Shown here: in pieces, positions 1-64,000 of the stretch | How the letters are laid out: each line of letters starts with the position of its first letter | How positions within the stretch are numbered: the first letter of the stretch is position 1 | From: Deroplatys truncata | Taxonomy: Eukaryota > Arthropoda > Insecta > Mantodea > Mantidae | Direction: 5' to 3' | DNA: 64,000 bases | Assembly (NCBI GenBank): GCA_030765065.1 | Contig: CM060988.1 | Location: forward strand, 178,167,065-178,231,064 | Translations under genes and position numbers: made by a program | Notes under the pieces: generated by a model | Databases searched by the model: none | What the model was told of the DNA's origin: nothing | The model's input: the letters and a program-made list of their open reading frames with translations, nothing else

Positions 1-81
1 TTCATTGTACTCTTGTACAGAGCCATTCAGAATTTTCATTGTTATTTACGTTGATGTAAGAACAATTGCAAAGTGATTTAT

Positions 82-1015
82 ACAAATGTGCTACCCACAT
101 GACTTTCTCTACTCTTGTACAAACTATTTTTACAATCTGTTATTCTCCATCTATTTCATATTAATCGAGATAAACATTTGCAGAAACGATCTTTTGACAT
201 GCAAAGAGAATTACATTTTACACATAGCGAGCAGTTCTAAAAATATTTGACTATCGCTTAAGGCGTACTATGTTCCCCTTGTTTTGTATTTGCAAGAGCA
301 AATTTAGAAATACAGCAGCCTTTAAGCATATACATATCTCTTAATAGATGGTTGCTAGGTGCAGCACCATTCTCTTTGCCACAGATTAATACTCTTTGCA
401 TATCCAAGACAAAATTAATAACGAATTCCCATTTGAGACAAGTATTGAAAAATTTAAGGGATAGCAAGCAATATCTCTAAAATGGTTCACTCAACAAAAC
501 ATGTATATGACATAAATTGTGTATTTTAACACGATCTACATTTTTTGTGTAGTAAAATTTTGTCTATCTCTTATGGTTTACCAGTTATGCAAAAGTCGTT
601 CACAATGAAGAATACTTTTGGAGACATACCCAGAAAATTCGAGACATACATTTCATTTGTCATGAAAATATCTTAAACATATGATATTTTAATCACAATC
701 GTTAGTTATTTTTGAGAAAATTAAAATTTTCGAAAAATGTTCCATGTAAAGGGTAATCTGGGGTTAGGGGATTTTCTTGAAAACCTTCGTGTCGCATCTC
801 TGGAAGATACTGAACCTAAATACCAAGTTTGGTGTTCGTTTCTGAGTTATGATGTTCACAGACACACACATACACACGCGCGGACATGTTTCCAAAAATG
901 CTTTTTATTATTCAGGGGGTCTCAAAACATATATTTCCGGTGAAATCTCGGTATTGAATTTTTGGGTGGAATACACTACTTCCCCTACTTAGTATACATA
1001 GTAGAGAAAGTAAAA
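82..1015 (-). repeat. HINE-A copy, near full length
   Basis: Reads right to left from the GTAGAGAAAGTAAAAA terminus at 1001-1015 to the stem-loop end near 84-100. The microsatellite core is at about 862-880. The stem-loop end is worn but the subterminal ACTTTCTCTACT at about 102 is intact. It carries the recurrent antisense reading frame (737-943). Confidence 0.8.
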
Positions 1016-2263
1016 ATTAAATTGAGCCTCATCCAAATAAAACACGACTAATGGCATTTACTTTCCCCCATGATATCAAACAACTTTTATTAAAGACATG
1101 TCTTTCTACAACGTTTAGTTGTGGAGATATTGTAGTCTCAACTTACATGGCCCATTCTTATATAATAAATATATTATATCGGGTGAGTATTCTCAGCCTC
1201 CGGATTAAGAAGTTATGCAGTCCCGGCGCTGTACGCGCTAAGGCGTAATCACTGTCCACTGCATCGTGTCGTATCAATCTCGGCCGAAATGACTGCTTTG
1301 CTCCGCTATCCGTGCAGTAGCTTGCGCTCGTAGCGCAACAGTGCGCGCGATGGGCTTTTAGTGGTGAAGATACTGTTCAAATACTGTTACTTGAAGGTAC
1401 TTTTTATGTTTAGTAAATTTAATGAGAACTGATAGTTTGGCATGGAAGTGTCGATTCAGTTTCATACATAAATGCAAGAAATGAATAAAAAAACTCATTT
1501 ATTCGCAGGCGTAATTTGAAATTCCGGCCTTCACCATTTACTTTCCAGCATGCTAACCATTGCGCTACTACAGCACGTTAACAGCGAGCTGGTGAATGCG
1601 GTGTCAGCAGCTACATTTCGCATCCTTCTAAAAGAGTTGCCTAGTTACCAATCCACAGGATGAGAAGACTCACGCGGTATATGCTGGTGAACGCAGACGA
1701 CCAGAGAAAGGATCACTCCAGGTAGTTGAAGACAAAAGCTTGTGAGTGTCAAAGGGCAAGCCAGCTAAGTAAGATGAGCCATACCGGGAAATACCAGAAC
1801 GGTAAAACTTAGCCAAGCGCACAGACGCTAGAGAGACGTACTTTCTAAATAACATTAACCAATAATTTATTGAAGAAACCAGGAACAGAATCAAAAATCA
1901 TGTGACTAGAGTAAGGGTATGACGAAAATGAAACTGAGCGTAAACTGGAATCTTGTGAGCTCAATTTCAGACGTGCATAACATCGATACTTCGTGTCAAA
2001 ACGTGGTAGGTCAGGTGACAGCTCCGTGTCAGAAAGTGTCGGCGTTGTAACAAAGAATGTTTAAGTGTTGACTATTATTACTGATTGAAATTAAGTATGA
2101 GAGAACGCTGTAAGGAAATGGAAATGAGGAATAACAAGTTTAATTAATCGTGGGGTCGCGTATGGCTTGTGACAGGAACTAGGAAAGGATAATTATTTTA
2201 CAAATAGTGTGGAATTTCACATAAACGGGCCAAAGAAGGAGCAATGGAGTCTTATCGTTATCT
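1016..2263. other. Unassigned interval
   Basis: No coding signal or family resemblance recognised, apart from a tRNA-like segment at 1507-1576. A GC-richer patch at about 1220-1350 is not explained. Confidence 0.4.
1507..1576 (-). repeat. Degenerate tRNA-like segment (SINE head or tRNA pseudogene)
   Basis: On the minus strand an A-box-like TAGCGCAATGG (1557-1567) is followed about 35 nt later by a weak B-box-like TTTCAAATTAC (1511-1521). The spacing suits a RNA polymerase III tRNA promoter, but the T-arm pairing is poor. It is probably a decayed tRNA-derived retroposon head. Confidence 0.35.
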
Positions 2264-2358
2264 CCTATCCACACTTTCGTAAGAATAATTTGTATACCCA
2301 CTTATAAATGATCGAGTGTAGAGAAAGTTATGTGAATGTGACACATCAGATTTTTTTT
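2264..2358 (+). repeat. HINE 3'-end fragment
   Basis: Contains GTAGAGAAAG, the stem-loop region TGTGAATGTGACACA and the terminal T-run. It is truncated on the left. It lies just upstream of the mariner insertion. Confidence 0.7.
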
Positions 2359-2388
2359 AGATTCAACTGTATAAACTTCGGCATTAAA

Positions 2389-5475: not shown

Positions 5476-5733
5476 GATAGCCCCAGTAGATCAAGAACTG
5501 CCGCACGGCCGCTGCATATCCCTCTCTATATGATATCATAGGGAGTCCATATGCGTGGCATTGGGTCAGCCTGCCGTTTCTTTCTGATGAATACATTTCC
5601 AATGACCTCACCTCGTATTAGACCTTCCAGCCAAGGAAAATCCCCATGCGTGTTGCGGGAGTCGCATGCGTTCCTAACAAGGCCAACACATCGCTACTTG
5701 TATGCCCATGTAAAGCGTTACAGTGTAAAAAAA

Positions 5734-6522
5734 AATCAAATTTTTTACACTCACATAACTTTCTCTACTCTTGTACAAACTATTTTTACAAACGCTTATT
5801 CTCCATATGCTTTATGTTAATCGAGATGTTAATCTTATTGCTAGTTTTCTTGTAGATGCAAGGGTAATTGCTAGGCTTTAAGCGACAGTCAAATATTTTA
5901 AGAGGTGGTTGCTATGTGGAGTATTCCATTCTCTTTGTATGTACAGGGCATAAAAATGAATAACAAACTCCCATTTGAGAAAAAGTATTGGAAAATTTAA
6001 GGGAATAACAAGCAATATCTCGAAAATGGTTCACTCAACAAAAAGCAATGTATATGACATAAATTGTGTATTTTAATGCGATCTACATCTTTTTTGTAGT
6101 AAAATTTTGTCTATCTCTTATGGTTTACCAGTTATGCAAAAGTCGTTCAGAATGAAGAACACTTTTGGAGACATTCCAAGAAAATTCGAGATATACATTT
6201 CGTTTGTCATGAAAATATCTTAAACATATGATATTTTAATTAAAATCATTAGGGCCATTTTTGAAAAAATTAAAATTTTCGAAAAATGCTCCATGTAAAG
6301 GGTTATTTGGGGTGGGAGGATTTTCTTGAAAACCTTCGTTTAACAGACCGTTCGTTTCTGAGTTATGCTGTTCACAGACACACACACACGGACATGTTTC
6401 CAAAAATGCTTTTTTTGGAATCAGGGGGTCTCAAAACATGTATTTCCGGTAAAATCTCGGTATCGAATTTTTGGGTGGAATACAATACTTCCCCTACTTA
6501 CTATACGCAGTAGAGAAAGTAA
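5734..6522 (-). repeat. HINE-A copy, near full length
   Basis: Starts with TTTACACTCACATAAC (stem-loop side) and ends with CAGTAGAGAAAGTAA. The TACTACGTATAGTA palindrome survives as CTATACGCAGTAG. A CA microsatellite is at about 6378-6390. Confidence 0.8.
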
Positions 6523-6925
6523 TTATCCTCAGAACCCCAAGCGTTTTATTCTCCAGAAATAATTGCACTGGAATATTCAATTAATTGGTATATAGAGGTG
6601 TGTGAGCGGAGTTTAGTCGCCTACTAATGGATGTTACGAATATTGGAATTGTGTCTTTGAATACAATGCAGTTCCAAGATACCGACCACCAGCCAGTTAC
6701 ATTTCTTAGTATGGGGCATGGACAAATAAAGAGATAATAACTGTGGCTTTCACCTATAGTTTATCATACAATTGCAGCACCTGCATGAATTAAACTTTAA
6801 AATAAACTAAAGGTGTGCCTAGATTCGCGGAACACACGCTGTTAGTTGTTGCAACGAAATAGTCGGAGAATCTGTACGTATGTTACATTAACATTTATAA
6901 ATACTACCACAAATATTCAGTATAA
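6523..6925. other. Unassigned interval
   Basis: AT-rich spacer between a HINE and the LINE tail. Nothing recognised. Confidence 0.4.
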
Positions 6926-11462: not shown

Positions 11463-12317
11463 ATAAAAAAAATCTGATGTGTTACACTCACATGAGTTTC
11501 TCTACTATTGTACAAACTATTTTTACAAACGCTTATTCACCATATGCTTCATGTTAATCGAGATGTTAATCTTATTGCTAATTTTCTTGTAGATGCAAGG
11601 GGAATATGGTAAGTTTTAAGCGATAGTCAAATATTTTAAGCGCTGGTTGCTATGTGGAGTATTCCATTCTCTTTGCATGTCCAGGGCATAAAAAAATGAA
11701 TAACGAATTTGAGAAAAGTAAAAGTATTGGAAAATTTAAGGGAATAACAAGCAATATCTCGAAAACGGTTCACTCAACAAAAAAAAATGTATATGACATA
11801 AATTGTGTATTTTAACGTGATCTACATTTTTTGTGCAGTAACATTTTGTCTATCTCTTATGGTTTACCAGTTATGCAAAAGTCGTTCAGAATGAAGAGCA
11901 CTTTTGGAGAGATTCCCAGAAAATTCGAGATATACATTTCATTTATCATGAAAATACCTTAAACATATGATATTTTAATCAAAATCGTTAGAGCCAGTTT
12001 TGAGAAAATTAAAATTTTCGAAAAATGTTCCATGTAAAGGGTACTCTGGGGTGGGAGGATTTTCTTGAAAACCTTCCTGTCGCATCTCTGAAAGATACTG
12101 AACCAAAGTACCAAGTTTGGTGTTTATCCGACTGTTCGTTTCTGAGTTATGCTGTTCAAAGACACACACACACACACACACGGACATGTTTCCAAAAATG
12201 CTTTTTTTGGATTCAGGGAGTCTCAAAACATGTATTTCCGGTGAAATCTCGGTATTGAATTTTTGGGTGGAATACAATACTTCCCCTACTTACTATACGT
12301 AGTAGAGAAAGTAAAAA
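11463..12317 (-). repeat. HINE-A copy, full length
   Basis: Both termini are present: AAAATCTGATGTGTTACAC at the left and CGTAGTAGAGAAAGTAAAAA at the right. A (CA)9 core lies at about 12163-12181. The antisense frame 12025-12258 is open. Confidence 0.85.
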
Positions 12318-18225: not shown

Positions 18226-18898
18226 GCCTTTTGTTTGGCTCAAACACCATTCCTTAGATAACAGAAGAGAAAGTAAAAAGCTGTTTTCGTATCTTTAGAC
18301 GGCTTCTGTAACTTCTCGGGTTTTGGTCCAGGTTAACTTCACATTAATAGCTGGGTATATAGTAGCACGTGTGATACCAACTTTGGAAAGTTAACCCCCC
18401 CACTGCTGTCACGCGAATTTGTGACGACCCCGCTCACATCTGGGGCGAGCAGGACGTGATCCAGGCTTCTGTACGTGTTTTTCTTTCTGCTTAACCGTCC
18501 CGAAAAAGATGATTTAAAATTCAGGTCAGTTCATAGTACACCAAGGAGAACATGGGTTTCAAATTGCGAACAGTGCTACCCCCCTCCTTCTAAAAAAAAA
18601 AGATTTTATTGCTCCGTCTACGGACGTGCCCGCTCGGACAAGCTCGAAATCAGCTTGTGCTCCTACTTTTTTATTTTTATCGCTATGGTACAGATATTTG
18701 TTGAGGTTCTTTTTTTTGTGCTGATGTTTCATAGCTCTGACGGAAATAAACAACTAACACAGGATTTCCAGCGTTTCCTTTCCGGGGTTTAACTCTCAGT
18801 TAGTTCAAGATCACTGCGTTATGAAATACAGAACATAAAACAATCTTATATTTAAAACAGAAATAAAGAGTCAGTAATTTTTAGGTGGAAATAATAAC
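18226..18898. other. Unassigned interval
   Basis: Nothing recognised. A 105-codon plus ORF (18475-18792) spans an A-rich run and has no domain signature. Confidence 0.4.
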
Positions 18899-19557
18899 AA
18901 AAAGTGTTACACTCACATGACTTTCTCTACTCTTGTACAAACTATTTTTACAAACGCTTATTCTCCATATGCTTCATGTTAATCGAGATGTTAATCTTAT
19001 TGCTCATTTTCTTGTAGGTGCAAGGGGAAAATTTAAGGGAATAACAAGCAATATCTCGAAAATGGTTCACTCAACAAAAAAAACGTATATAACATAAATT
19101 ATGTATTTTAACGCGATCTGCATTTTTTCTGTAGTAAAATTTTGTCTATCTCTTATGGTTTACCAGTTATGCAAAAGTCGTTCACAATGAAGAATACTTT
19201 TGGAGACATTCCCAGAAAATACGAGATATACATTTTATTTGTAATGAAAATAGCTTAAACATATGATATTTTAAACAAAATCGTTAGAGCCATTTATGAG
19301 AAAATTAAAATTTTCGAAAAATGTTGCATGTAAAGGGTAATATGGGGTACGGGGATTTTTTTTGAAAACCTTCGTGTCGCATCTCTGGAAGATACTGAAT
19401 CTAAATACAGACACACAGACGGACATGTTTCCAAAAATGCTTTTTTTTTATTCAGGGGGCCTCAAAACATATATTTCCGGTGAAATCTCGGTATCGAATT
19501 TTTGGGTGGAATACAATAATTCCCCTACTTACTATACGTAGTAGAGAAAGTAAAAAA
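18899..19557 (-). repeat. HINE-A copy, internally deleted
   Basis: Both termini are intact (GTGTTACACTCACATGAC; CGTAGTAGAGAAAGTAAAAAA). Bases between TGCAAGGGG and AAATTTAAGGG are missing, joining two blocks normally about 130 bp apart. The CA core is also short. Confidence 0.8.
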
Positions 19558-20308: not shown

Positions 20309-20309
20309 A

Positions 20310-27020: not shown

Positions 27021-27870
27021 AAAAAATCTGATGTGTTACACTCACATGACTTTCTCTACTCTTGTACAAACTATTTTTACAAACGCTTATTCTCTATATA
27101 CTTCATGTTAATCGAGATGTTAATCTTATTGCTAATTTTCTTGTAGATGCAAGGGTAATTGGTAGGCTTTAAGCGATAGTCAAATGTTTTAACACCTGGT
27201 TGCTATGTGGAGTATTCCATTCTCTTTGTATTACCACGACAAAAAAAATGAATAATGAATTTGAGAAAAAGTATAAATATTGAAAAATTTAATGGAATAA
27301 CAAGTAATTCTCGTAAATGGTTCACTCAACAAAAAAAATGTATATGACATAAATTGCGTATTTTAACGCGATCTACAATTTTTGTGTAGTAAACATTTGT
27401 CTATCTCTTATGGTTTACCAGCCATGCAAAAGTCGTTCACAACGAAGAATACTTTTGGAGATATTCCCAGAAAATTCGAGATATACATTTTATTTTTCAT
27501 GAAAGTATCTTAAATATATGATATTTTAATCAAAATCGATAGAGCCATTTTTGAGAAAATTAAAATTTTCGAAAAATGTTCCATGTAAAGGGTAATCTGG
27601 GGTGGAGGATTTTCTTGAAAACCTTCGTGTCGCATCTCTGGAAGATACTGAACCTAAATACCAAGTTTGGTGTTTTTCCGACAGTTCGTTTCTGAGTTAT
27701 GCTGTTCACACACACGCACACACACACACACACACACGGACATGTTTCCAAAAGTGCTTTTTTTGGAGTCAGGGGGTCTGAAAACATATATTTCCGGTGA
27801 AATCTCGGTATCGAATTTTTGGGTGGAATACAATACTTCCCCTACTTACTATACGTAGTAGAGAAAGTAA
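27021..27870 (-). repeat. HINE-A copy, full length
   Basis: Termini AAAAAATCTGATGTG and CGTAGTAGAGAAAGTAA. A long CA core of about 30 bp at 27708-27737. Confidence 0.85.
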
Positions 27871-28130
27871 TATGTTATTTTAATCTAAATCATTAGAACC
27901 ATTTTTACAAACTTTTGGCTGGGAGGGGAATTTCCTAAAAATCTTCTGTCGCATTTTTGTAAGATACTGAAGTTAAGTACCAAGTTTGGTATTTATCGAA
28001 CATTTTATACTATCCACACACACACGAAACTTGTTCTAACAATAGTTCTGCATTTGAATTCAGGGAGCCTCATAAAGCGCAGTGGAATACAATACTTCCC
28101 CTACTTATTAGGCACGTGGTAGAGAGGATA
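27871..28130 (-). repeat. HINE-B fragment, directly behind a HINE-A
   Basis: Begins inside the body at TGTTATTTTAATC and runs through a CACACACACG core to CACGTGGTAGAGAGGATAG. It abuts the previous copy with no spacer, as if the HINE-A had landed in it. Confidence 0.7.
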
Positions 28131-29713: not shown

Positions 29714-30527
29714 CAAAAAATCTGATGTGTTACACTCAGATGACTTTCTCTACTCTTGTACAAACTATTTTTGCAAACGGTTATTCTCCATATGCTTCAT
29801 GTTAATCCAGATGTTAATCTTATTGCTAATTTTCTTGTAGATGCAAGGGGAATTGGTAGGTTAGTAGGATAGTCAAATATTTTAAGAGCTGATTGCTATG
29901 TGGAGTATTCCATTCTCTTTGCATTACCAGGACAAAAAAAATTACACCGAATTTGAGAAAAAGTATAAGTATTGGAAAATTTAAGGGAATAACAAGCAAT
30001 ATCTTGAAATTGGTTCACTTAAAAAAAATTATATGATATAAATTGTGTATTTTAACGCGATCTACATTTTTTCTGTAGTAAAATTTTGTGTATCTCTTAT
30101 GGTTTACCAGTTATGAAGAGGACATTTTGGAGATATTCCCAGTAAATTCGAGATATAAATTCATTTACCATAAAAATGTCGTAAACATATGATACCTTAA
30201 TCAAAATTGTTAGAGCCATTTTTCAGAAAATTAAAATTTTCGAAAAATGTTCCATGTAAAGGGTAATCTGGGATGGAAGGATTTTCTTGAAAACCTTCGT
30301 GTCGCATCTCTGTAAGATACTGAACCTAAATACCAAGTTTGGTGTTTATCCGACTGTTCGTTTCTGAGTTATGCTCTTCACAGACACACACGGACATGTT
30401 TCCAAAAATGCTTTTATTGGATTCAGGGGGTCTCAAAACATGTATTTCCGGTGAAATCTCGGTATCGAATTTTTGGGTGGAATACAATACTTCCCCTACT
30501 TACTATACGTAGTAGAGAAAGTAAAAA
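29714..30527 (-). repeat. HINE-A copy, full length
   Basis: AAAAAATCTGATGTG at the left, CGTAGTAGAGAAAGTAAAAA at the right. CA core short. Confidence 0.85.
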
Positions 30528-31377: not shown

Positions 31378-32954
31378 CTAAAAAATATCTGATGTGATAC
31401 ATTCACATGAATTTCTCCACTCCTATTGCTTAATATTGGGGGACACATATTAGTCTTAATACAGCTTATTTTTCTATATACTAAGTTTTAACCAAAATAA
31501 ATCTTTGCAAAAACAGCTACATTACACACTTCGTTATAGATAAAAAGAGAACAGCGATAGTCAAATGTTTAACAACTGGACGCTATATGCTGGCCTTAAA
31601 ATTCCATACTGTTTCCATGACATCGCGAAAAACAACCGAGTATCGACAAAACCTAAGAGAACGACCAAAAAATGTATAATTCGAACTATTGTTAACGGAT
31701 ATCTCAGAAATTGCTAATTTCACAACAAACTTATTTGAAACAAAGATTGTGTTTTGAAGATATCTAGATTTTTTTTACGTAGTACGTTTTTGTCTATCAC
31801 TTATACAAGCTTATACAAGATTCCTTACGAATGAAGAAGACTTCACAGGATATTTCCAGGAGATTCAAGATATACGTTTTATTTGCGATATAAATATCTT
31901 TAATATACGGTATGTTAATCAAAATCATTACAGACATTTCTTAGAAAATAAAATATTTCGAAAATTTTTCCATGTAAAGAGTAGTTATCGATGGGAGGAT
32001 TTTCTTAAAAACCTTCATGTCCCATCTTTGGAAGGTACTGAGCTTAAATACCCAGTTAGGAATTTAACCTCAACATTCGACATCGGATTTCACCGGAAAT
32101 ACATGTTTTGAGGCCTCCTGAATCCAAAACACATTTTTAGAAAAGGTTCAGCATGTGTTTGTGTGCATGTGAATGCATAACTCAAAAACGAAAAGTCGAT
32201 AAATACCAAAGTTGGTATTTAGGTTCAGTATCTTTCAGAGATGCAACACGAAGATTTGCAAGAAAATCTCCCCACCCCAGGTTGTTTTTTACATGGGACT
32301 TCTTTCGACATTTTTTCCTCAAAAATGACTATAAAGACTTTGATTAAAATAGCATATGTTTAAGATACCTTCATGGCAAATGAAATGTATATCTTGAATT
32401 CTTTGGGAATGTCCCCTCTTCATTGTGAATCAATTTTGCATAAATGGTAAACCGTAAGCGATAAACAAAATGTTAATACACTAAAAATGTAGATCTTGTT
32501 AAAATACACAATTTATGTCCTATACATTTTTTGACACGTGAGACATTTCCTAGATATTCCTTGTTATTTGTTTAAATTTTGCAATACTTATAGTTATTCT
32601 CACAACCAGCTCTTAAAATATTTGACTATATCTTAAAGCCTAGCAATTCCCCTTGCACCTACAAGAAAATTAACAATAAGATTAACATCTCGATTAACAT
32701 GAAGCATATGGAGAATAAGCGTTTGTAAAAATAGTTTGTACAAGAGTAGAGAAAGTCATGTGAGTGTAACGCATCAGATTTTTTAGTTATACTGTTTACA
32801 GACACACACACACACACGGACTGTTTCCAAGATGCTTTATTTGGATTTAGAGGTCCTCAAAACATGCATTTCCGGTGAAATATCGGAATATAATTTTTGT
32901 GTGGAATGTAATACCATCTCTACCTACTATATACGTGGTAGAGAAAGTAAAAAA
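31378..32954 (-). repeat. HINE-B copy split by a HINE-A insertion
   Basis: Pieces 31378-32080 and 32785-32954. The left terminus GATGTGATACATTCACATG keeps a perfect 5-bp stem (ATGTG/CACAT) with a loop different from HINE-A. The copy breaks in the TTCG...TTTTGAGTTATG region and resumes at AGTTATACTG, then CA core and ACGTGGTAGAGAAAGTAAAAAA. Confidence 0.75.
32081..32784 (+). repeat. HINE-A copy inserted in a HINE-B, 5'-truncated
   Basis: Starts at CATCGGATTTCACCGG, lacking the first ~60 bp, and ends with a full subterminal repeat, stem-loop and T-run at 32784. It lies in the opposite orientation to its host, so the locus is an interrupted palindrome. Confidence 0.75.
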
Positions 32955-34102: not shown

Positions 34103-34950
34103 TTTTACCTTCTCTACCATGTCCAAAGTAGGTAGAGAAAGTATTGCCTTCCACCAAAAAATCAATTCCGAGAATTCACCCGAAATACATGTTTTGAGGT
34201 CCCTGAATACAAATAAAACACTTTTATAAACATATCCGCGCGGGCGCGCGCGTTTATGAACAGCATAACTCAAAAACGAAGCTTGAGATGAACGCCAAAC
34301 TTGGTATTTGAGTTCAGTATCTTCCAAAGATGCGACAAGAAGATTTTCAAAAAAGTCAGCTAAACCCACCTACCATTTACATGCAGCATTTTTAAAAAAT
34401 TTTGATTTTCTAAAACACTGCTGTAATGATTTTGATTAAAATACCATATATGAAAAATATTTACATGACAAATAAGATGTATATCTTCAATTTTCTGGAA
34501 CAGCCTTTGAAGTCCTCTTCATTCGGAAGGAATTTTCTATTATCTTTTATAACTTGTAGACGAAAACGTACTACACAAAAAATGTATATCTCTATAAAAC
34601 ACACAATTTATTTCAAACAAGTCTTCTTGTGGCATAAGCTGTTTTTGAGATATCCGTTATTAAAGCTTCGAATTGTTAAATACTTATTCTTTTTAAGTCC
34701 CATAGATTTTCAATTGTTTGCGATGTCATGGAAACAGCATGGAATTTTAAGGCCAGCATATAGTGTCCAGCTCTTAAACATTTGACTATCGCTGTTCTCT
34801 TTGCATCTATAACGAAATGTGTAATGTAGCTATTTCTGTAAAGATTTATTAGGACTAAAATTTAGCAGATAGAAAAATAAGCTTTAGTAAGAATAGTTTG
34901 TACATCCACTAATAGAGTCGGTCATGCACATGTATCACATCAGTTTTTTT
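34103..34950 (+). repeat. HINE-B copy, full length
   Basis: TTTTACCTTCTCTACC start; the core is a CG-rich run (CGCGCGGGCGCGCGCG) instead of GT repeats. The body has CCAGCATATAGTG, and the 3' stem-loop is worn (CATGCACATGTATCACATC). Confidence 0.75.
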
Positions 34951-38168: not shown

Positions 38169-38774
38169 TTTTTACTTTCTCTACCAGGTATAGTAAGTAG
38201 GGGAAGTACTGTATTCCACCCAAAACTTCTATGTGGACATTTTACCGGAAATATATGTTTTGAGACCCCTGAACCCCCAAAAAATTGTAGTTCAAAAAGA
38301 ATCCCCCCACCCCACTATCCTTTACATGGAACATTTTTGGAAAATTTTGATTTTCTAAAAAAATTCTCTAACGATTTTGATTAAACTACCACATATTAAA
38401 GATGCTTACATGAAAAATATATATTATCTTCAATTTTCTGGGAATAGCCTGCGAAGTCCTCTTCATTCGGAAGGAACGTTTATAACCTAATATAACTGGT
38501 AAACGTTAAACCATAGACGAAAAAGCAGCATACAAAAATAGGTCTCTTTAAAACACTTAATTTATTTCAAGTAACTTTTTTTTTGGCAGAAGCCACTTCT
38601 AAGATATCATTTATTAAAGTTTGGAAGTGTTCGTTTCTTGGTCACTCTTGAAGTCCTGTCAACATTCAGTTGTTTCTCGCGATGTCATGGAAACAAACAT
38701 TTGACTATCGGTATTTATACCCAATAATACATGTACAGGGTAGAGAAAGTCGTGTGAATGTTACACATTGGATT
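38169..38774 (+). repeat. HINE-B copy, internally shortened
   Basis: TTTTTACTTTCTCTACC start. The GT core is deleted (TTGTAGTTCAAAAAG joins directly to the CCCCACCCC block). The 3' stem-loop (GTGTGAATGTTACACAT) is present. Confidence 0.75.
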
Positions 38775-38973
38775 GTTTTTACTTTCTCTGCAAGAATTTT
38801 ATTGCATTTCACTCAAACAGTCCATATCGATATTTCAGCGAAAATACACGTTTTGAGGCTCCTTGAATTCAAAAGAAGCAGTTAAAGAAAGCGCCTGTGT
38901 CTGTATGTATGTGAACAACATAACTCAACAAACGAAAATACCAATTTATATTTAAGTTCAGCATCTTTCATAT
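38775..38973 (+). repeat. HINE 5' part in tandem with the previous copy
   Basis: Starts TTTTTACTTTCTCTGC immediately after the 3' stem-loop of 38169-38774, same orientation. It breaks off after the GTGTCTGTATGTATGTG core at TCAGCATCTTTCAT. Confidence 0.7.
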
Positions 38974-44115: not shown

Positions 44116-44769
44116 AAAAAGTTCTGATGATACATTCACATGATTTTCTCTTCCCCCACATTTCGTTATACATACAGGGAACAGTGATAGTCAAATGTTT
44201 AAGACCTGGACGCTATATGCTGACCTTAAAATTCCATACCGTTTCCATGACATCGCGAGAAACAACTGAATGTTGACAGTACTTTAAAACAATGATCAAG
44301 TAATGAACAACTAGAAACATTAATAACGTATATCTCAGAAATGGCTTATGCAACAAAAACGTTATTTGAAATAATTTGTGTTTTAAAGAGATCTACATTT
44401 CTTGTGAGTATTTTTCTTCTATCGCTTAACAGTTGTACAAGATTATACAAAACTCCTTTGAATTTGTCATGTAAATATCATTAATATATGATATATTAAA
44501 CAAAATCTTTATAGCCATTTTTAGGAAATCAAAATTTTCGAAAAATATTCCATGTGAAGGGTAGTTTGGAGTGGGAGGATTTCTTGAAAATCCTCGCATC
44601 TTTGATAAACACTGAACGTAGATACCATGTTTGGTATTTATCCAAGACTTTGAGTTATGCTGTGCACAGAAACACACACACACACACATGAAACTATTAG
44701 GCCTCCTGAAACTAAAACTGGAACGCAATACCTTCTCTACCTATACAAACGTGGTAGAGAAAGTAAAAA
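44116..44769 (-). repeat. HINE-B copy
   Basis: Left GTTCTGATGATACATTCACATG, body CTATATGCTGACC, (CA)10 core at about 44670-44689, right ACGTGGTAGAGAAAGTAAAAA. Confidence 0.8.
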
Positions 44770-44770
44770 C

Positions 44771-45287
44771 TCTTGTGTTACACTCACATGACTTTTTCTA
44801 CTCTTGTACAAACGCTTATTCTCTATCTACTTCATGTTAATCGAGATAAACATTTGAAGACTTATTGCTAATTTTCTAGTAGATGCAAGGGGAATTGGTA
44901 GACTTTAAGCGATAGTCAAATCTTTTAAGAGCTGGTTGCTATGTGGCGCAGTCCATTCTCTTTGCATGTCCAGGACAAAAAAACGAATAAGGAATTCCCA
45001 TTTGAGAAAAAATATATGTATTACAAAATTCAAACAAATACCAAAATGGTTTTGACTCAAAAAAGTGTATTAAATAAACTGTGTGTTTTAACGAGATCTA
45101 CATTTTTGTGTAGTAAAATTTTGTTTATCTCTTACGGTTTACCAGTTATGCAAAACTCATTCAAATGAAGGGGTCTTTTGGAGACATGAAAATTCAATAT
45201 ATACATTTCATTTGTCATAAAAGTGCCTTAAACATATGATATTTAAATCGTTAGCCGTTTTTGAGAATATCAAAATTTTGGAAAATG
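44771..45287 (-). repeat. HINE-A copy, 5' side truncated
   Basis: Starts GTGTTACACTCACATGAC directly after the previous copy and stops at TTTTGGAAAATG, before the core. Confidence 0.75.
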
Positions 45288-48604: not shown

Positions 48605-49356
48605 GTTTTTACTTTCTCTATTACGTATAGTAAGCAGGGGAAGTATTGTATTCCACCCAAAAATTCGATACTAGGTGTCACCGGAAATACATGTTTCGAG
48701 ACCCCCTGAATCCAAAACAAAGCATTTTTGGAAACCTGACCGTGTGTGTGTCTGTGAACAGTATAACTCAGAAACGAACAGTCGGATAAACACCAAACTT
48801 GATATTTAGGTTCAGTATCTTCCAGAGATGCGACACGAAGGTTTTCAAGAAAAAACCCTTTACATGGAACATTTTTCGAAAATTTTAATTTTCTCAAAAC
48901 TGGCTCGAACGATTTTGATTAAAATATCATATGTTTAAGATATTTTCATGACAAATGAAATGTATATCTCGAATTTTCTGGGAAGTCTCCAAAAGTATTG
49001 TTCATTGTGAACGACTTTTGCATAACTGGTAAACCATAAGAGATAGACAAAATTTTACTACACGAAAAATGTAGATCGCGTTAAAATACGCCATTTATGT
49101 CCTATACATTTTTTTGTTGAGTGAACCATTTTGGAGATATTGCTTGTTATTCCCTTAAATTTTCCAATACTCTTAAACCAGCTCTTAAAATATTTGACTG
49201 TCGCTTAAAGCCTAGCAATTCCCCTTGCATCTACAAGAAAATTAGCAATAAGATTAACATCTCGATTAACATGAAGCATATGGAGAATAAGCGTTTGTAA
49301 AAATAGTTTCTACAAGAGTAGAGAAAGTCATGTGAATGTAACACATCAGATTTTTT
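48605..49356 (+). repeat. HINE-A copy, full length
   Basis: TTTTTACTTTCTCTATTACG at the start; stem-loop ATGTGAATGTAACACAT and T-run at the end. About 75 bp are deleted after the CAATACT block of the body. Confidence 0.85.
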
Positions 49357-51973: not shown

Positions 51974-52892
51974 ATGTCGAAAAATCTGATGTGTTACAAT
52001 CACATGACCTTCTCTACTCTTGTACAAACTGTTTTTACAAACGCTTATTCTCCATCTACTTCATGTTAATCGAGATAAACATTTGCAGACTATCTTATTG
52101 CTAATTTTCTTGTAGATGTAAGGGGAATGTATATTTACAAGTGCGTATCGAAATACAGTAGCCTTTAAGCACATACATATCTCTTAATAGCTGGTTGCTA
52201 TGTGCAGCACCATTCCCTTTCCCACAGATTGATACTCTTTGCATATCCAAGACAAAAAAATGAATAACGAATTCCCATTTGAGAAAATAAGTATTGAAAA
52301 AATTAAGAGAATAACAAGATATATCTCGAAAATGATTCACTCAACAACAAAATTTATATGACATAAATTGTGTATTTTAACGCGATCTACATCTTTTGTG
52401 TATTAAAATTTTGTCTATCTCTTATGGTTTACCACTTTACCAAAAGTCGTTCACAATGAAGAGTACTTTTGGAAACATTCCCAGAAAATTCAAGATATAC
52501 ATTTTATTTGTCATGAAAATATATTAAACATATGATATTTTAATCAAAATCGTTAGAGCCATTTTTAAGAAAATTAAAATTTTCGAAAAATGTTCCATGT
52601 AAAGGGTACTCTAGGGTGGGGGGATTTTCTTGAAAACCTTCGTGTCTCTTCCTTGGAAGATACTGAACCTAAATACCAAGTTTGGTGTTTATCCGACTGT
52701 TCGTTTCTGAGTTTTGCTGTTCACAGACAGACAGACACACAGACGCACAGACACACGGACATGTTTCCAAAAATGCTTTTTTTGGATTCAGGGGGTCTCA
52801 AAACATGTATTTCCGGTGAAATCTCGGTATCGAATTTTTGGGTGGAATGCAATACTTCCTCTACTTACTATACGTAGTAGAGAAAGTAAAAA
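51974..52892 (-). repeat. HINE-A copy, full length, young looking
   Basis: Both termini intact; extended core of CAGA/CACA repeats at 52725-52755. Carries the longest clean version of the recurrent antisense frame (52590-52877, 95 codons). Confidence 0.85.
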
Positions 52893-53194: not shown

Positions 53195-54885
53195 TTTTCA
53201 CTTTCCAAATACATAGAGTAAGTAGGGGAAATATTGCACTCAATCCAAATAAAGCATTTTTGGAAACATGTCCGTGCGTGTGTCTGTCTGTGAACAGCAT
53301 AACTCAAAAATGAAAAGTCGTATAAACACCAAAATTGATATTTGTATTTAGTATCTTCCAAGGATGCTACACGAACATTTTCAAGAAAATCCTCCCCCAG
53401 ACCACCCCTTACATATTCACTTTCTTAAAAATGGCTCTCACGATTTTGGTTAAAATATCATATGCTTAAGATATTTTCATTATGAGGCAGTATTTTTAAC
53501 ACTTGAATGATTTCAGACTAATTATATCATATATAAATTCAATAACAGCCCGTCTTGAAGCAATATGTGTATGTAATAATTTGTAAAATGTATGTAACAG
53601 TCATTGCATGTGCTTATATTATTGTAAACATGTTTAATAACGTTATGTGAATATATTAGGTAATTTAATAATGTAGGAGCTGTGAGAATAATAAGTTAAA
53701 AGTTGCTAACAATGAGGCAACAATGAGGTAATCTTGAGGCAACAATGAATTTGAAAGTTTAAATGCTACTAATCATTATTGGAGCAACAATAATGTAATT
53801 TTTGTGACAGTTTATAAAATAGCCATTCAACAGCCAGAAAAAGCTTTAGTTAAATGAAGGTATTCTATTGGAGTAGGATTAGCAAATCAGAAACCGAAAA
53901 GGAGAAAATTTTACAAATTTAGAGTTCAGTTGCCTGCAGATAGCGTTACTAACCAGACGCAAAAAGTGTCCTCAAGAAATATAATATGAATTCGTGTGAG
54001 ACGAAAAATAAGTTTACGTGTTAAAAAGTGTAATTAAATAATAAAAAGAATCTCAAAGCTCTCTATATCAATGAAGAGTTATTTAAACCGTGTCAAGCAT
54101 TCATAAAAGGAGCGAAATAAAATTATAATCTGTGTAACCTACATTCTTGTCGCATCACAACCCTGCCAAGATATCCATGAGTCTAAAATAAATACTGACG
54201 CAGCCGAGGCAAACATAAATATTAAATATTTAAAGAAACAGTTTAATTACAAAGTTAATATTTTTTTAAACTTGGGGCAAACACCACCTGAAAACACATT
54301 TGGGGCGAAGGCTATCGGAAACTGTTTACCCTACGTGCGGTTGCAACTACTACAATTTCGGCTCCCCAACAGTTGAAATACGATACAACTCCTTCAATAC
54401 AAACTACTTCAAATTGACGCCCAAAGCGTGGTGCAAACAACGTAACGACAATATCTACTTCAATTACAAATGAAATGTATATCGTGAATTTTATGGGAAT
54501 GTCCCCATAAGTCCTCTTCTTTGTGAATGGCTTTCCCATATTCTAAGATCTAGACAAAATTCTTCTACACAAAAAATGTAGATCTTGTTAAAACACACAA
54601 TTTATTCATATACATTTTTTGTGGTCTCAATCATTTCCAAAAACATTCCTTGTTATTTGTTTTAATTTTCCAATACTTACACTTTTCTCAAATGGGAATT
54701 CGTTATTCGTTTTTTTATGCCCTGGACATACAAAGAGAATGGAATACTCCACATAGCAACCAGCTCTTAAAACATTTGACTATCGCTTAAAGTCTACCAA
54801 TTCCCCTTGCATCTACAAGAAAATTAGCAATAAGATTAACATAACAAGAGTAGAGAAAATCTGTGTGTACAACTCATCAGTTTTA
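53195..54885 (+). repeat. HINE-A copy split by a solo LTR
   Basis: Pieces 53195-53482 and 54464-54885. The LTR lies in ATATTTTCAT-ACAAATGAAATG. The 3' end is worn (ATCTGTGTGTACAACTCATC). Confidence 0.75.
53483..54463 (-). mobile_element. Solo LTR, family A, reverse orientation (fossil)
   Basis: 981 bp, TGAGGCAGTAT...CTACTTCA on the plus strand, with perfect 4-bp duplication ATTA (53479-53482, 54464-54467). Reverse complement of the 14-16 kb and 21 kb copies. No internal region is present. Confidence 0.85.
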
Positions 54886-54889
54886 TTTA

Positions 54890-57350: not shown

Positions 57351-58251
57351 TCTTTTTACTTTCTCTACTACGTATAGTAAGTAGGGGAAGTATTGTATTC
57401 CACCCAAAAATTCGATACCGAGATTTCACCGGAAATATATGTTTTGAGAACCCCTGAATCCAAAAAATGCATTTTTGGAAACATGTCCGTGTGTGTGTCT
57501 GTCTGTGAACAGCATAACTCAGAAACGAACAGTCGGATAAACACCAAACTTGGTTTTAGGCTCAGTATCTTCCAGAGATGCGACACGAAGGTTTTCAAGA
57601 AAATCCCCCACCCCAGATTACCCTTTACATGGAAGATTTTTCGAAAATTTTAATTTTCTCAAAAATGGCTCTAACGATTTTGATTAAAATATTATATGTT
57701 TAAGATATTTTTATGACAAATAAAATTTATATCTTGAATTTCCTGGGAATGTCTCCAAAAGTATTCTTCGTTGTGAACGACTTTTGCATAACTGGTAAAC
57801 CATAAGAGATAGACAAAATTTTACTACACAAAAAATTTGGATCGCGTTAAAATACACAATTTATGTCTTATATATTTTTTTGTACAGTGAACCATTTTCG
57901 AGATATTGCTTGTTATTCCCTTAAATTTTTTAATACTTATTTCCTCAAATGGGAATTCGTTATTCATTTTTTTGTCTTGGGTATGCAAAGAGTTATAATC
58001 TGTGGCAAAGGGAATGGTGCTGCACCTAGCAACCAGCTATTAAGAGATATGTATGTGCTTAAAGGCTACTGTTTTTCTATATTGCCCTTGTAAATATATT
58101 TTCCCCTTACATCTACAAGAAAATTAGCAATAAGATAGAGTCTGCAAATGTTTATCTCGATTAACATGAAGTAGATGGAGAATAAGCGTTTGTAAAAATA
58201 GTTTGTACAAAAGTAGAGAAAGTCATGTGAGTGTAACATATCAGATTTTTT
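57351..58251 (+). repeat. HINE-A copy, full length (reference copy)
   Basis: TTTTTACTTTCTCTACTACG, palindrome TACTACGTATAGTA, GTGTGTGTCTGTCTGTG core at 57490-57510, complete body, AGTAGAGAAAGTCATGTGAG, stem-loop and T-run. The best plus-strand example. Confidence 0.9.
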
Positions 58252-58297: not shown

Positions 58298-58350
58298 TGA
58301 GGCAGTATCTTTAACACTTAAATAATTTCACTCTAATTATATTATCCAAT
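58298..58350 (-). mobile_element. LTR family A end fragment (fossil)
   Basis: TGAGGCAGTATCTTTAACAC and TAATTTCACTCTAATTATAT match the first ~50 bp of 53483-54463. Confidence 0.65.
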
Positions 58351-58351
58351 A

Positions 58352-59221: not shown

Positions 59222-59910
59222 AAAAAATCTGATGTGTTACACTCACATGACTTTCTCTACTCTTGTACAATCTATTTTTACAAACGCCTATTCTCCATAT
59301 GCTTTATGTTAATCGAGATATCGAGATGTCAATCTTATTGCTAATTTTCTTGTAGATGCAAGGGGAATATGGTAGCTTTTAAGCGATAGTCAAATATTTT
59401 AACGCTGGTTGCTATGTGGCGCATTCCATTCTCTTTGCAAGTCCAGGACATAAAAAAATGAATAACGAATTTGAGAAAAAGTATAAGTATTGGAAAATTT
59501 AAGGGAATAACAAGCAATATCTCGAAAACGGTTCACTCAACAAAAGAAATGTATATGACATAAGTTGTGTATTGTAACGAGATCTACATTTTTTGTGTAG
59601 TAAAATTTTGTCTATCTCTTATGGTTTACCAGTTATGCAAAAGTCGTTCACAATGAAGAATACTTTTGGAGACATTCCCAGAAAATTCGAGATATACATT
59701 TCATTTCTCATGACATTATCTTAAACATATGATATTTTAATCAAAATCGTTAGAGCCATTTTTGAGAAAATTAAAATTTTCGAAAAATGTTCCATATAAA
59801 GGGTAGTCTGGGGTGGGGGGATTTTCTTGAAAACCTTCGTGTCGCATCTCTGAAAGATACTGAACCTAAATACCAAGTTTGGTGTTTATCCGACTGTTCG
59901 TTTTTGAGTA
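59222..59910 (-). repeat. HINE-A copy, 5' side truncated
   Basis: AAAAAATCTGATGTG at the left; stops at the TTCGTTTTTGAGT block before the core. Confidence 0.8.
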
Positions 59911-59995
59911 ATATAAACAAAACTAATTGAACATGATAAATGCTGCATAACGTTTTTTATAAAATAGGGTCACGAAACTACTACTGCAAACTTTG

Positions 59996-60165: not shown

Positions 60166-60707
60166 CACCCTTTATCCGCCAATGAAGAGGTAATTTACGT
60201 CCGTCAGATTGGCATCACTTGGTTCCCGTCCAAGATGACGGGCTGGCGCGTGGAAGTGCATAGCAACTGGAGTGCAGATGAATTATGCACCGCGCCGCAT
60301 AACGCATGGGGTATTTAATTTGGGTATTGCTGCCTGTAGGACTTTTAATTTCCCCGGAGATCACGCGGAGGGGAGCATATTTAAATCCCTAGGGCTTTGT
60401 CCCTCTTGGAACAGCCACCAGATTCACTGAAACGAATGCTTCAAGCACCTCGTCAAGGCAGTAACGCGAAATTCCCTCTAATATCATCTAATTTCCCTAC
60501 CATCTCCCGAAACTGCATTAATTATGCGTTCTTGGCAGGTAGTGGCACCCACCACCCACTTAAATATTTCCCGACGATACATTTTCTTAATGGCAAATGA
60601 ATACGAAAGGATCAACCAATGTACCATTGACACATTTTTACTTTCCCTACTACCTCACTGTAACCCGTACAAAGAAAATGCAAACTTTTATGTCAATTTA
60701 ATAATAA
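60166..60707. other. Unassigned interval
   Basis: Nothing recognised. Confidence 0.4.
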
Positions 60708-61457
60708 AAAAAGCTTATGTGATACACTCAAATGACTTTCTTACCCTCTAGCGTATATTAGTGGGCATACAAATTATTCTTCACAAGCTTATTTTTCTAA
60801 CTACTACATTTTAATCCAAATAAATCTTAACGGAAATAGCTACATTACACATTGCGTTATAGATACAAAGAGAACAGTGATAGTCAAATGTTTAACAACT
60901 GGAACGCTATATGCTGGCCTTAAAATTCCATACTGTTTCCATGACATCGCGAGAAACAACTGAATGTTGACAGGCCTAAGAGAATGACCAAGAAATGAAC
61001 AATCCTAACCTATAAATGCTGTTATTTCAGGAATGTCCTATGCCACAAAAAATTACTTGAAATAAATTGTGTATTTTGAAGAGATCTTCATTTCAAGTAT
61101 AGTACATTTTCGTGTATCGTTTAACGTTTATCAATTATACAAGATGATATAAAATTCCTTTCGAATGAAGAGGACTTCACAGTCTATTCCCAGAAAATGT
61201 ATATTCAGGATATACATTTTATTTGTCCTGTAAATATGTATAATATGTGGTATTTTAATAAAAATCTTTCGTTCATTTTTTATAAAATGATAACTTTCGA
61301 AAAATGTTTCATGTGAACTGTGCGGGGGACTTTCTTCAAAATCTTCGTGTCGCATCCTTGGACAATACTGAACTTGCATACAAAGTTTGGTATTTATCCG
61401 ACTTTTCGTTTCAGAGTAGTGCCGTTGACAGACACACAGACACGGACCTTTTTCTAA
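60708..61457 (-). repeat. HINE-B copy, 5' end missing
   Basis: Left TATGTGATACACTCAAATGAC, CTATATGCTGGCC, ends inside CACGGACCTTTTTCTAAA. Followed by two more minus copies. Confidence 0.8.
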
Positions 61458-61680
61458 ACATCTGGTGTGTTGCAGTCACATGACTTTCTCTACTCTTGTA
61501 CAAACTATTTTTTACAAACGCTTATTCTCCATATGCTTCATGTTAATCGAGATGTTAATCTTATTGCTAATTTTCCTGTAGGTACAAGGGGAATATGGTA
61601 GGCTTTAAGCGATAGTCAAACATTTTAAGAGCTGGTTGCTATGTTGCGCATTCCATTCTCTTTGCATGTCCAGGACTTGA
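61458..61680 (-). repeat. HINE-A, stem-loop-side fragment
   Basis: TCTGGTGTGTTGCAGTCACATG through GCTGGTTGCTATGTTGCG to GTCCAGGACTTG, where a complete copy begins. Confidence 0.8.
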
Positions 61681-62510
61681 AAAAAAAAATCTGATGTGTT
61701 ACACTCACATGACTTTCTCTACTCTTGTACAAACTATTTTTACAAACGCTTGTTCTCCATATGCTTCATGTTAATCGAGATGTTAATCTTATTACTAATT
61801 TTCTTGTAGGTACAAGGGGAATATGGCAGACTTTAAGCGATAGTCAAGTCTTTTAAGAGCTGGTTGCTATATGGAGTATTCTATTCTCTTTGTATGTCCA
61901 GGACATAAAAAATGAATAACGAATTCCCATTTGAGAAAAAGTATTGGAAAATTTAAGGGAGTAACAAGCAATATCTGGAAAATCGTTCACTCAACAAAAC
62001 AAATGTATATGAAAAATTGTGTATTTTAACGCGATCTACATTTTTTGTGTAGTAACATTTTGTCCATCTCTTATGGTTTACCAGTTATGCAAAAGTCGTT
62101 CACAATGAAGAATACTTTTGGAGAAATTCCCAGAAAATTCGAGATATACATTTCATTTGTCATGAAAATATCTTAAACTAATGATATTTTAATAAAATTC
62201 GTTAGCTATTTTAAGAAAATGAAAACTTACTAAAATGTACTTTGTAAGGGATAGAGGGGAATTTAATTTAATATCTTAATGTGACAACCTCGGAAAATAC
62301 TGAATTCAAATATCGGGTTTGATATTTAACTAACTTTTTGAGTTATGCTGTTCACAGTCAGACAGACATGCAGACGGACATGTTTCCAAAAATGCTTTAC
62401 TTGGACTCAGGGCACCTTAAAACATGTATTTCCTGTGATATCTCGGTATCAAATTTTCGGGTGGAATTGAATACTTCCCCTAATTACTATACGTAGAAGG
62501 GGAAGTTAAA
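61681..62510 (-). repeat. HINE-A copy, full length
   Basis: AAAAATCTGATGTG at the left and ACGTAGAAGGGGAAGTTAAAA at the right. The antisense frame is broken here. Confidence 0.8.
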
Positions 62511-63146
62511 ATTCTCGACCACAGAAGCACCGAGGCAATGTCCTACAATATTGATGAATCTAACGTATTCCATTTCTCTTATATTACGTAAATTCACATT
62601 CCCCATTCTTTGCACTTTTCTACCCGCTACTACGTTGGAGACCCGAAATAAAGTAGGCTGAAAATGACATTCCACTTGTAACCACACTGCACAATTCGGT
62701 ATCCAGTCACATGTTACAGACAGGTGAAATTAAATTGTTAGCAGTTGGTATTAGCGACACATGGCATTCCTCAGACACTCGTGAGGGCATGCCGGGCCGT
62801 TACGTAAGTTGCCGGGGATCTCGTCTTGCCAAAGGGCGCTCCTGTATACAAAAGGATAATTACTTAATACAACTACCAAGTGATGATGCCAGTCCCCATA
62901 GCAACGCTGCGTGCGGCGACGCCTCCACCCACACAGGCGGATGTTTTTAACGATTTTATCAGCCCTATCATTTAATGAGAAAACACAAAAATGTTTACAT
63001 AAATGCGCCCTTATTTACAGCTATGCTAAACTGTTTCCAATATTTTGGTTTCCATTCGCGTTAGCGCTAGCGTGACGGAAATAACACGTGTAGCTTTTAC
63101 CTGGTTCAAACCAGCATTCACAGGAGCGCTTTGCAAATCTGTGTGT
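62511..63146. other. Unassigned interval
   Basis: No repeat shared in the window and no recognised coding domain. Slightly GC-richer at 62780-62950. Confidence 0.4.
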
Positions 63147-63216
63147 TACATTCACGCGGATTTTTCTACCCTCTATCTTTATTAGTTGGTATACAAACTA
63201 TTCTTACTAAAGCTCG
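63147..63216 (-). repeat. HINE-B stem-loop-side fragment
   Basis: GTGTGTTACATTCACGCGG and CCCTCTATCTTTATTAGTTGG, cut by the following plus copy. Confidence 0.6.
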
Positions 63217-64000
63217 TTACTTCTCTACTACGTATAGTAAGTAGGGGAAGTATTGTATTCCACCCAAAAATTCGATACCGAGATTTCGCCGGAAATACAT
63301 ATTTTCAGACCCCCTGAATCCAAAAAAAAAAAAAAACATTTTTGGAAACATGTCCGTGTGTGTGTCTGTGTGTCTGTGAACAGCATAACTCAGAAACGAA
63401 CAGTCGGATAAACACCAAACTTGGTATTTAGGTTCAGTATGTTCCAGAGATGCGACACGAAGGTTTTCGAGAAAATCCCCCCACCCCAGATTACCCTTTA
63501 CATGGAACATTTTTCAAAAATTTTAATTTTTTAAAAAATGGCCTTAACGGTTTTGATTAAAATATCATATGTTTCAGATATTTTCATGACAAATGAAATG
63601 TATATCTCCAATTTTCTGGGAATGTCTCCAAAAGTATTCTTTATTCTAAACGACTTTTGCATAACTGGTAAACCATAAGAGATAGACAAAATTGTACTAC
63701 AGAAAAAATGTAGATCGCGTTAAAATACACAATTTATGTCATATAGATTTTTTTTGTTGAGTGAACCATTTTCGAGATATTGCTTGTTATTCCCTTAAGT
63801 TTCCAATACTTATACTTTTTCTCAAATTCGTTAATCATTTTTTTTTTGTCCTGGTAATGCAAAATATTTGACTATCGCTTAAAGCCTACCAATTCCCCTT
63901 GCATCTACAACAAAATTAGCAATAAGATTAACATCTCGATATCTCGATTAACATGAAGCATATGGAGAATAAGCGTTTGTAAAACTAGTTTGTACAAGAG
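63217..64000 (+). repeat. HINE-A copy running off the window
   Basis: ACTTCTCTACTACGTATAG start, GTGTGTGTCTGTGTGTCTGTG core, body to GTACAAGAG at 64000. The subterminal repeat and stem-loop lie just outside. Confidence 0.85.

What the first reader, a model, noticed from the sequence alone, without database searches (positions are those of the whole stretch)
1..64000. A DINE-1/Helentron-like non-autonomous family makes up about 40% of the window
About 55 segments share one architecture: T-run plus subterminal ACTTTCTCTACT, palindrome TACTACGTATAGTA, GT/CT microsatellite core with GTCTGTGAACAGC and AACTCAGAAACGAAC, AT-rich body, inverted AGTAGAGAAAGT, stem-loop ATGTG-7nt-CACAT and terminal T-run. 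Seen: the layout and copy number. Known: Helentrons and their DINE-1-like derivatives have short subterminal inverted repeats, an internal short-tandem-repeat region and a 3' stem-loop, and insert between T's. Inferred: this is such a family. Density this high is unusual.
Basis: partly seen in the sequence, partly recalled or inferred. Interest (0 to 1): 0.8.

Follow-up and report, generated by a model that had tools for sequence, protein, structure and literature searches.

The report
DINE-1-like rolling-circle transposon fossils
A little over two fifths of this DNA window, probably from an arthropod, is made of old, non-coding copies of one "jumping gene" family built like the DINE-1 elements of flies; the find is real and locally dense, but belongs to a known kind of element.

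Summary
A profile started from 32 copies and iterated on the window ends with 69 hits covering 42.2%, and none in the reversed window. BLAST hits chain into 53 copies, 17 nearly full. The anatomy matches published DINE-1/HINE elements (non-autonomous Helentrons): 12-bp subterminal inverted repeats ACTTTCTCTACT/AGTAGAGAAAGT; a partial inverted repeat beside the 5' copy, making a 13-bp hairpin; a GT/CT microsatellite; a short 3' stem-loop; T-runs at both ends; and no target duplication beyond T's in 14 copies examined. No Rep-helicase match appeared in the 28 kb scanned in six frames. The one mariner-type element whose ends I read has different ends, so no DDE partner is indicated. Profile hits are 5-48% diverged from consensus: old, probably several waves. 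One 1.8-kb cluster (62508-60709, minus) fuses a whole copy to the 3' parts of two others, as rolling-circle read-through of a nested donor would leave; deletions are not excluded. No host genome was held, so the autonomous partner, clean empty sites and genome-wide density are untested. Verdict: new member of a known kind.

The parts
57354..58251 (+). full-length reference copy, both ends intact
   Evidence: K2P 9.1% from consensus
57357..57395 (+). 5' end of the reference copy: subTIR ACTTTCTCTACT, palindrome TACTACGTATAGTA and partial inverse repeat AGTAGGGGAAGT, folding as one hairpin
58212..58251 (+). 3' end of the reference copy: subTIR AGTAGAGAAAGT, stem-loop (here ATGTG-N7-CATAT, consensus ATGTG-N7-CACAT), CAGATTTTTT
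11467..12316 (-). full-length copy close to consensus (K2P 6.7%)
27021..27872 (-). full-length copy (K2P 6.6%) whose 5' flank is the 5' part of an older copy (27870-28129, minus)
5730..6524 (-). full-length copy
29715..30526 (-). full-length copy
48607..49356 (+). copy with both ends and an internal gap relative to the consensus
51979..52891 (-). full-length copy
63217..64000 (+). copy cut off by the window's end
18892..19555 (-). copy with an internal gap relative to the consensus; its last bases after the stem differ
34103..34950 (+). old full-length copy (K2P 26%)
31384..32952 (-). old copy split by a younger copy in the opposite orientation (about 32072-32784, plus); about 13 bp of the old copy and roughly the first 35-54 bp of the insert are missing
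60709..62508 (-). composite: whole copy A (62508-61686), 3' part of copy B (61685-61456), 3' part of copy C (61458-60709)
44157..45286 (-). two head-to-tail copies sharing one T-run at 44765
38170..38970 (+). two head-to-tail copies sharing one T-run at 38778
53196..54887 (+). old copy interrupted by an element of about 0.97 kb of another repeat family (53482-54454)
59222..59912 (-). copy lacking its 5' part
2274..2356 (+). isolated 3' end of the older end type

Best explanation
This is a family of non-autonomous rolling-circle transposons of the Helentron group (DINE-1-like / HINE), here in an animal, probably arthropod, genome (host inferred, not established). Inferred mechanism: a Helentron Rep-helicase-endonuclease encoded elsewhere recognises the subTIR/hairpin ends, nicks at the T-rich 5' end, and copies the element as a single strand. 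It stops at the 3' subTIR and stem-loop and joins the copy between T's without a longer target duplication. Shown here: the ends, the pairing of the hairpins, the T-runs, the copy number, copies of very different divergence, and copies inserted in or abutting older ones. Not shown: the enzyme, the intermediate and the replication step.
For: Ends, from 23 BLAST-found 5' ends and 26 3' ends. Motif excess over shuffles. 5' hairpin: 89.8% of 254 cells pair, against 45-63% when slid. 3' stem: 85.4% of 144 cells pair, against 8-58% when slid. The T-run before TACTTTC starts sharply at -4 (83-91% T at -4 to -1, 22-26% at -5 and -6) and is exactly 4 T's in 14 of 23 ends; 11 of 24 3' ends read CAGATTTTT exactly. 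In 14 copies the longest match between flanks outside the T-runs is 1 bp, and the summed match (7) equals that of permuted flanks (7.1). No ORF over 428 aa in the window and none over 162 aa overlapping a profile hit. No Pfam match to Rep, helicase or endonuclease in ten ORFs and 28 kb scanned in six frames, apart from weak DDE transposase matches outside the family. Published DINE-1/HINE elements share these features: 11-15-bp subTIRs placed asymmetrically, a partial IR beside or partly inside the 5' subTIR, GTCY-rich microsatellite, 3' stem-loop, TT (D. yakuba WTTTT) target, no ORF.
Against: No autonomous partner was seen, and the genome could not be searched. No clean paralogous empty site was found: in the one nested case with both halves, about 13 bp of the old copy and the insert's first 35-54 bp are missing. 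The 3' stem is only 5 bp, folds no better than shuffled DNA (z +0.55 and -0.61 in the two ends folded) and shows no compensatory change; Drosophila DINE-1 stems are 7-11 nt. For the 5' hairpin, 63 of 500 shuffles reached the percentage paired. Two of 13 pairs have any change on both sides, and only one has more than a single row (T-A to C-G in 4 of 20 distinct rows); so the pairing support rests mainly on the slid control. [quoted passage not shown]
Confidence: 0.9

Rival explanations
1. A MITE family: short cut-and-paste elements with inverted repeats, moved by a DDE transposase, possibly duplicating TT.
For: The elements are short, non-coding and AT-rich with inverted repeats. DINE-1 was once read as a TIR element with a TT duplication. 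A duplication of T's alone cannot be excluded here. Mariner-type transposase fragments are present.
Against: The inverted repeat is not terminal at the 3' end: about 28 bp with a stem-loop follow it. The mariner-type element at about 2390-3670 has different inverted repeats, read by eye. No duplication beyond T's in 14 copies.
Confidence: 0.06
2. A SINE or LINE-derived family, copied through RNA and ending in a T-rich tail.
For: T-run at the 3' end; a reverse transcriptase fragment lies in the window.
Against: 33 of 53 chains reach into the first 60 consensus bases, and the 5' boundary is sharp. No target duplications beyond T's in 14 copies. A T-run is at both ends. The one tRNA-like hit (48347-48411) lies between pieces of one old copy, not at a family 5' end.
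Confidence: 0.02
3. The density is a local accident (a cluster) and the family is modest genome-wide.
For: One 64-kb window cannot represent a genome. T-rich copies are themselves targets, so insertions cluster (nested and abutting copies).
Against: Copies of very different divergence are all here (K2P 5-48%), so the accumulation was probably long-lasting.
Confidence: 0.6

Closest known systems
Drosophila DINE-1 / INE-1 (PMC2374699: section 6 part 1 and passages read; PMC4067079: abstract, section 6 and passages read)
   Same: 12-13-bp subTIR internal at the 3' end, second inverted repeat partly complementary to the 5' subTIR, microsatellite in the 5' block, 3' stem-loop, T-rich target, no long ORF
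   Different: subTIR sequence unlike those listed for 12 Drosophila species (ACTTTCTCTACT, against ATACCC-, TATACC- or TACCC-type); microsatellite mainly GT with some CT; 5-bp 3' stem rather than 7-11 nt; no central tandem array seen (Tandem Repeats Finder rows in family copies are the microsatellites and the 228-bp repeat of the composite)
HINE-Mo families of the mite Metaseiulus occidentalis (PMC4067079: passages and section 6)
   Different: 3' subTIR nearer the end (about 28 bp, against 38-60 bp); microsatellite in all 8 long copies printed here, only in some copies there
Helitron2_Cv and Helitron3_Cv of Calliphora vicina (PMC3630058: passages read)
   Same: DINE-1-like layout, 41 and 40 copies in one sequenced region
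   Different: all Helitrons together are 5.01% of 600 kb there, against 42% of 64 kb for this one family here
Helitron2-type FoHeli elements of Fusarium oxysporum (PMC5148889: abstract and passages read)
   Same: asymmetric terminal inverted repeats; in FoHeli1/2 end hairpins and a 3' end in ATTTT
   Different: fungal; other end sequences; many carry a Rep-helicase gene

Membership tests
DINE-1-like / HINE (non-autonomous Helentron) | 11-15-bp subterminal inverted repeats, close to the 5' end and internal at the 3' end | tested here: met
   21 of 29 3' ends match the subTIR at 11 or 12 of 12 positions
DINE-1-like / HINE (non-autonomous Helentron) | inverted repeat beside, and partly inside, the 5' subTIR | tested here: met
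   13-bp hairpin, 89.8% of cells paired against 45-63% slid; covariation weak
DINE-1-like / HINE (non-autonomous Helentron) | short stem-loop between the 3' subTIR and the 3' end | tested here: met
   present as sequence; energetically weak and without covariation
DINE-1-like / HINE (non-autonomous Helentron) | insertion between T's without further target-site change | tested here: inconclusive
   T-runs at both ends and no match beyond 1 bp outside them in 14 copies; no clean empty site, the one nested case is damaged
DINE-1-like / HINE (non-autonomous Helentron) | internal microsatellite | tested here: met
   GT/CT tract in 8 of 8 long copies printed
DINE-1-like / HINE (non-autonomous Helentron) | no coding capacity | tested here: met
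   no ORF over 162 aa overlaps a profile hit; no Rep or helicase match in the ten ORFs and 28 kb scanned
DINE-1-like / HINE (non-autonomous Helentron) | shares its ends with an autonomous Helentron encoding Rep, helicase and endonuclease | not testable with these tools
   no genome held for the window; none seen in the 28 kb scanned
Canonical Helitron (Helitron1) | 5'-TC start and CTRR 3' end, insertion between A and T, no inverted repeats | tested here: not met
   ends are (T)nACTTTC and typically CAGATTTTTT, with subTIRs; definition from PMC5148889 and PMC3630058 passages
MITE of a DDE transposon | inverted repeats at both very ends with a fixed target duplication (definition recalled) | tested here: not met
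   3' repeat is internal; no duplication beyond T's, though TT alone cannot be excluded

The most novel reading that the evidence does not exclude
One Helentron lineage has become a dominant component of this genome. Its new copies land in the T-runs of old ones, and the rolling-circle machinery then reads past inner 3' ends, moving whole nests as composite units such as A-B3'-C3' at 62508-60709. The family would build up its own clusters by repeated terminator bypass.
Probability: 0.2. Interest if true: 0.55.

Novelty: new member of a known kind. Interest (0 to 1): 0.3.

Why it matters
It adds a Helentron-type family with its own end sequences and high local density, useful for annotation and for finding its autonomous partner. 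Sequences with these subTIRs could otherwise be masked as unknown or called MITEs. If the composite cluster is a real read-through product, it would be a natural trace in a Helentron-type element of the terminator bypass shown experimentally for the bat Helitron Helraiser (PMC4778049, abstract and passages).

Tried and rejected
MITE and SINE readings: rejected on the asymmetric ends, sharp 5' boundary and lack of duplications beyond T's. Mariner as partner: rejected for the element at about 2390-3670, whose inverted repeats (TACGAG.GC.GTCC) I read by eye; the ends of the other mariner-type fragments were not examined.

Searches for relatives that found nothing: five scans of viral contigs and one of genome contigs. 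By their descriptions these collections are viral, bacterial and archaeal, so this says little. Papers were searched for five end motifs as letters: 4 papers hold ACTTTCTCTACT, judged unrelated from titles and abstract starts in the listing, and none holds the other four. A search for pieces of a recalled insect core motif found 103 papers; the 20 listed look like chance by title. Searches were used as listings only, apart from the papers named as read.

The idea that the core after the microsatellite (AACTCAGAAACGAAC...AAACTTGGTAT) is related to a core in other insect DINE-like repeats rests on recall only. It found no support and is not used.

Covariation of the 3' stem: tested, none. Covariation of the 5' hairpin: weak.

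Mended on checking: the target-duplication test mis-cut the left flank in two of its ten copies. I redid it on 14 rows. There one row (6521/5769) has its 3' T-run cut too early, and read by eye that copy shares at most 1 bp. One of the 14 rows is the outer flanks of the composite, so copy A's left flank is used twice. The conclusion did not change.

Rows dropped. One search used 24 3' ends: relative to the 29 it leaves out 113, 17557, 18931, 30905, 44154, 48480 and 56352, whose end after the stem is damaged or lost, and adds 34910 and 54849; the 3' T-run figures thus describe better-kept ends. Its 23 5' ends are those of alignment A1 less 53199 plus 38780. Alignment A2 (29 rows) leaves out 56352 and includes 54849. 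Six-frame Pfam scans covered about 28 kb of 64 kb. The 60-bp identities are ungapped, so a one-base shift (as at 37488) counts as divergence.
Full report
What was checked. The window is 64,000 bases, 62.7% A+T (base counts), with no genome held for it. Mariner-type transposase fragments, a reverse transcriptase fragment and a gag-like ORF (no Pfam match above cut-off; my reading) suggest an animal, probably an arthropod; that is inference.

Copies. Nine copies gave an 848-bp consensus; 74 BLAST matches to it cover 33.5%. These chain into 53 copies, 17 nearly full by the cut-offs. A profile HMM from 32 copies gives 65 hits and 42.0% in its first round; after two more rounds on its own hits, 69 hits and 42.2%, with none in the reversed window. 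Divergence from consensus for the 55 profile hits of at least 100 bp runs from 5.2 to 48.2% (K2P, median 19.7). Even the least diverged have aged, and several waves are probably superposed. Two types of 3' flank occur. The younger reads ...TTTGTACAAG before AGTAGAGAAAGT. An older one often reads ...CCCACTAATAA...AG before GGTAGAGAAAGT.

Anatomy, in element orientation. 5' end: T-run, ACTTTCTCTACT, ACGTATAGTA, AGTAGGGGAAGT. Then a GT/CT microsatellite, GTCTGTGAACAGC, AACTCAGAAACGAAC and an AT-rich body. 3' end: AGTAGAGAAAGT, CATGTG-N7-CACAT (stem ATGTG/CACAT), CAGATTTTTT. The first repeat pairs with the partial inverse copy downstream as a 13-bp hairpin. It folds better than shuffled DNA in both ends tested (z -2.9 and -4.0), and 89.8% of 254 cells are paired against 45-63% when slid. 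Covariation is thin: two of 13 pairs have any change on both sides, one of them in 4 of 20 distinct rows (T-A to C-G), and 63 of 500 shuffles reach the overall pairing percentage. The 3' stem pairs in 85.4% of 144 cells against 8-58% slid, but shows no compensatory change and folds no better than shuffled DNA in the two ends tested.

Target. Before TACTTTC the T-run starts abruptly at -4, and 14 of 23 ends have exactly 4 T's; 11 of 24 3' ends read CAGATTTTT exactly. In 14 rows, no match longer than 1 bp joins the flanks outside the T-runs; the summed match is 7, against 7.1 for permuted flanks. In D. yakuba, eight of ten DINE-1 insertions fit WTTTT (PMC2374699 section 6 part 1), which resembles the T4 edge seen here.

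Partner. The longest stop-to-stop frame in the window is 428 aa, too short for an intact Rep-helicase (expected size recalled). Ten ORFs and seven stretches totalling about 28 kb in six frames gave one match above its Pfam cut-off, a reverse transcriptase. Matches below their cut-offs were DDE_3, Transposase_1, a Mos1-type HTH, DUF1664, Serine_rich and Geminin. There was no Rep or helicase match, and no endonuclease match other than the DDE type (E up to 0.1). The rest of the window was not scanned in six frames.

Nests and composites. A younger copy (about 32072-32784, plus) sits inside an old one (31384-32952, minus). Joining the flanks restores the old copy except for about 13 bp, and the insert lacks roughly its first 35-54 bp, depending on the aligner. 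Head-to-tail pairs share a T-run at 44765 and 38778. On the minus strand, copy A (62508-61686) runs at its T-run into the 3' part of B (61685-61456), which runs into the 3' part of C (61458-60709). The 400 bp on each outer side gives no profile hit at E up to 1, but there is one 25-bp BLAST match to a family 5' end about 57 bp beyond C, on the opposite strand (letters shown). A plain nest would need the 5' parts of B and C beside A, and they were not found there. One reading is that a nested donor was copied from A's 5' end past two inner 3' ends. Helraiser bypasses its 3' end, with about 11.7% of events capturing flank (PMC4778049, abstract and passages). The rival is a deletion that happens to end at A's 5' boundary. 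The copy at 27021-27872 shows the opposite loss, with old-copy sequence only on its 5' side, so deletions seem to occur here. Divergence (A 14.5%, B 10.4%, C 29.2%) does not decide between them.

Comparison with what is known. The layout is that of DINE-1 and HINEs (PMC4067079: abstract, section 6 and passages; PMC2374699: section 6 part 1 and passages). By the published naming rule (PMC4067079, passage), a family shares at least 11 bp of subTIR: 21 of 29 3' ends match AGTAGAGAAAGT at 11 or 12 positions. A subfamily shares 80% over the last 60 bp: 15 of 29 do against the young type, ungapped. So the window probably holds more than one subfamily. The one published regional density that I read is lower: 5.01% for all Helitrons in 600 kb of Calliphora vicina (PMC3630058 passages). 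I did not find, and cannot exclude, a denser published case; one search aimed at this returned a single paper, seen in the listing only.

Verdict. The finding and its interpretation stand. It is a new member of a known kind, with high local density as its main point of interest and a possible read-through composite as a lead.

Noticed in passing
14949-15919, 21026-21987, 53482-54454 (with relatives at 15959-16177 and 58298-58355): A second repeat of about 0.97 kb with one end reading TGAGGCAGTATTTTTAAC, 77-81% alike between the three long copies; one copy lies inside an old DINE-like copy, possibly with a TA on each side. Not classified.
   Followed up: partly
2390-3670: Degenerate mariner-type element (ORFs on the minus strand) with its own inverted repeats (TACGAG.GC.GTCC, read by eye).
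   Followed up: partly
25959-26300, 35700-36206, 51309-51851: Further weak mariner/Mos1-like transposase matches, below Pfam cut-offs.
   Followed up: no
7529-8354 (minus): Reverse transcriptase fragment (Pfam RVT_1, E 9.6e-16, about 8081-8354), followed by an open frame at 7529-7984.
   Followed up: no
50443-51035: Tandem array of a 104-bp unit, about 5.7 copies, near a mariner-like fragment.
   Followed up: no
48347-48411: Rfam tRNA match (46 bits) not called by ARAGORN, lying between pieces of an old DINE-like copy; perhaps a tRNA-derived SINE or a relic.
   Followed up: partly
93-1015: A copy whose inner segment 194-346 matches the family on the opposite strand, as if locally inverted or invaded by a fragment.
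   Followed up: no
60629-60653: A 25-bp stub like a family 5' end (TACTTTCCCTACT after a T-run, plus strand) just beyond the composite, with no recognised body.
   Followed up: no
39983-40827 and 42741-43554: Another repeated stretch of about 0.85 kb, 76% alike, with no Pfam match above cut-off in six frames.
   Followed up: partly
23936-25222 (minus): 428-aa open frame (stop to stop) with a zinc-knuckle-like cysteine/histidine stretch (my reading of the letters), gag-like, no Pfam match above cut-off.
   Followed up: no
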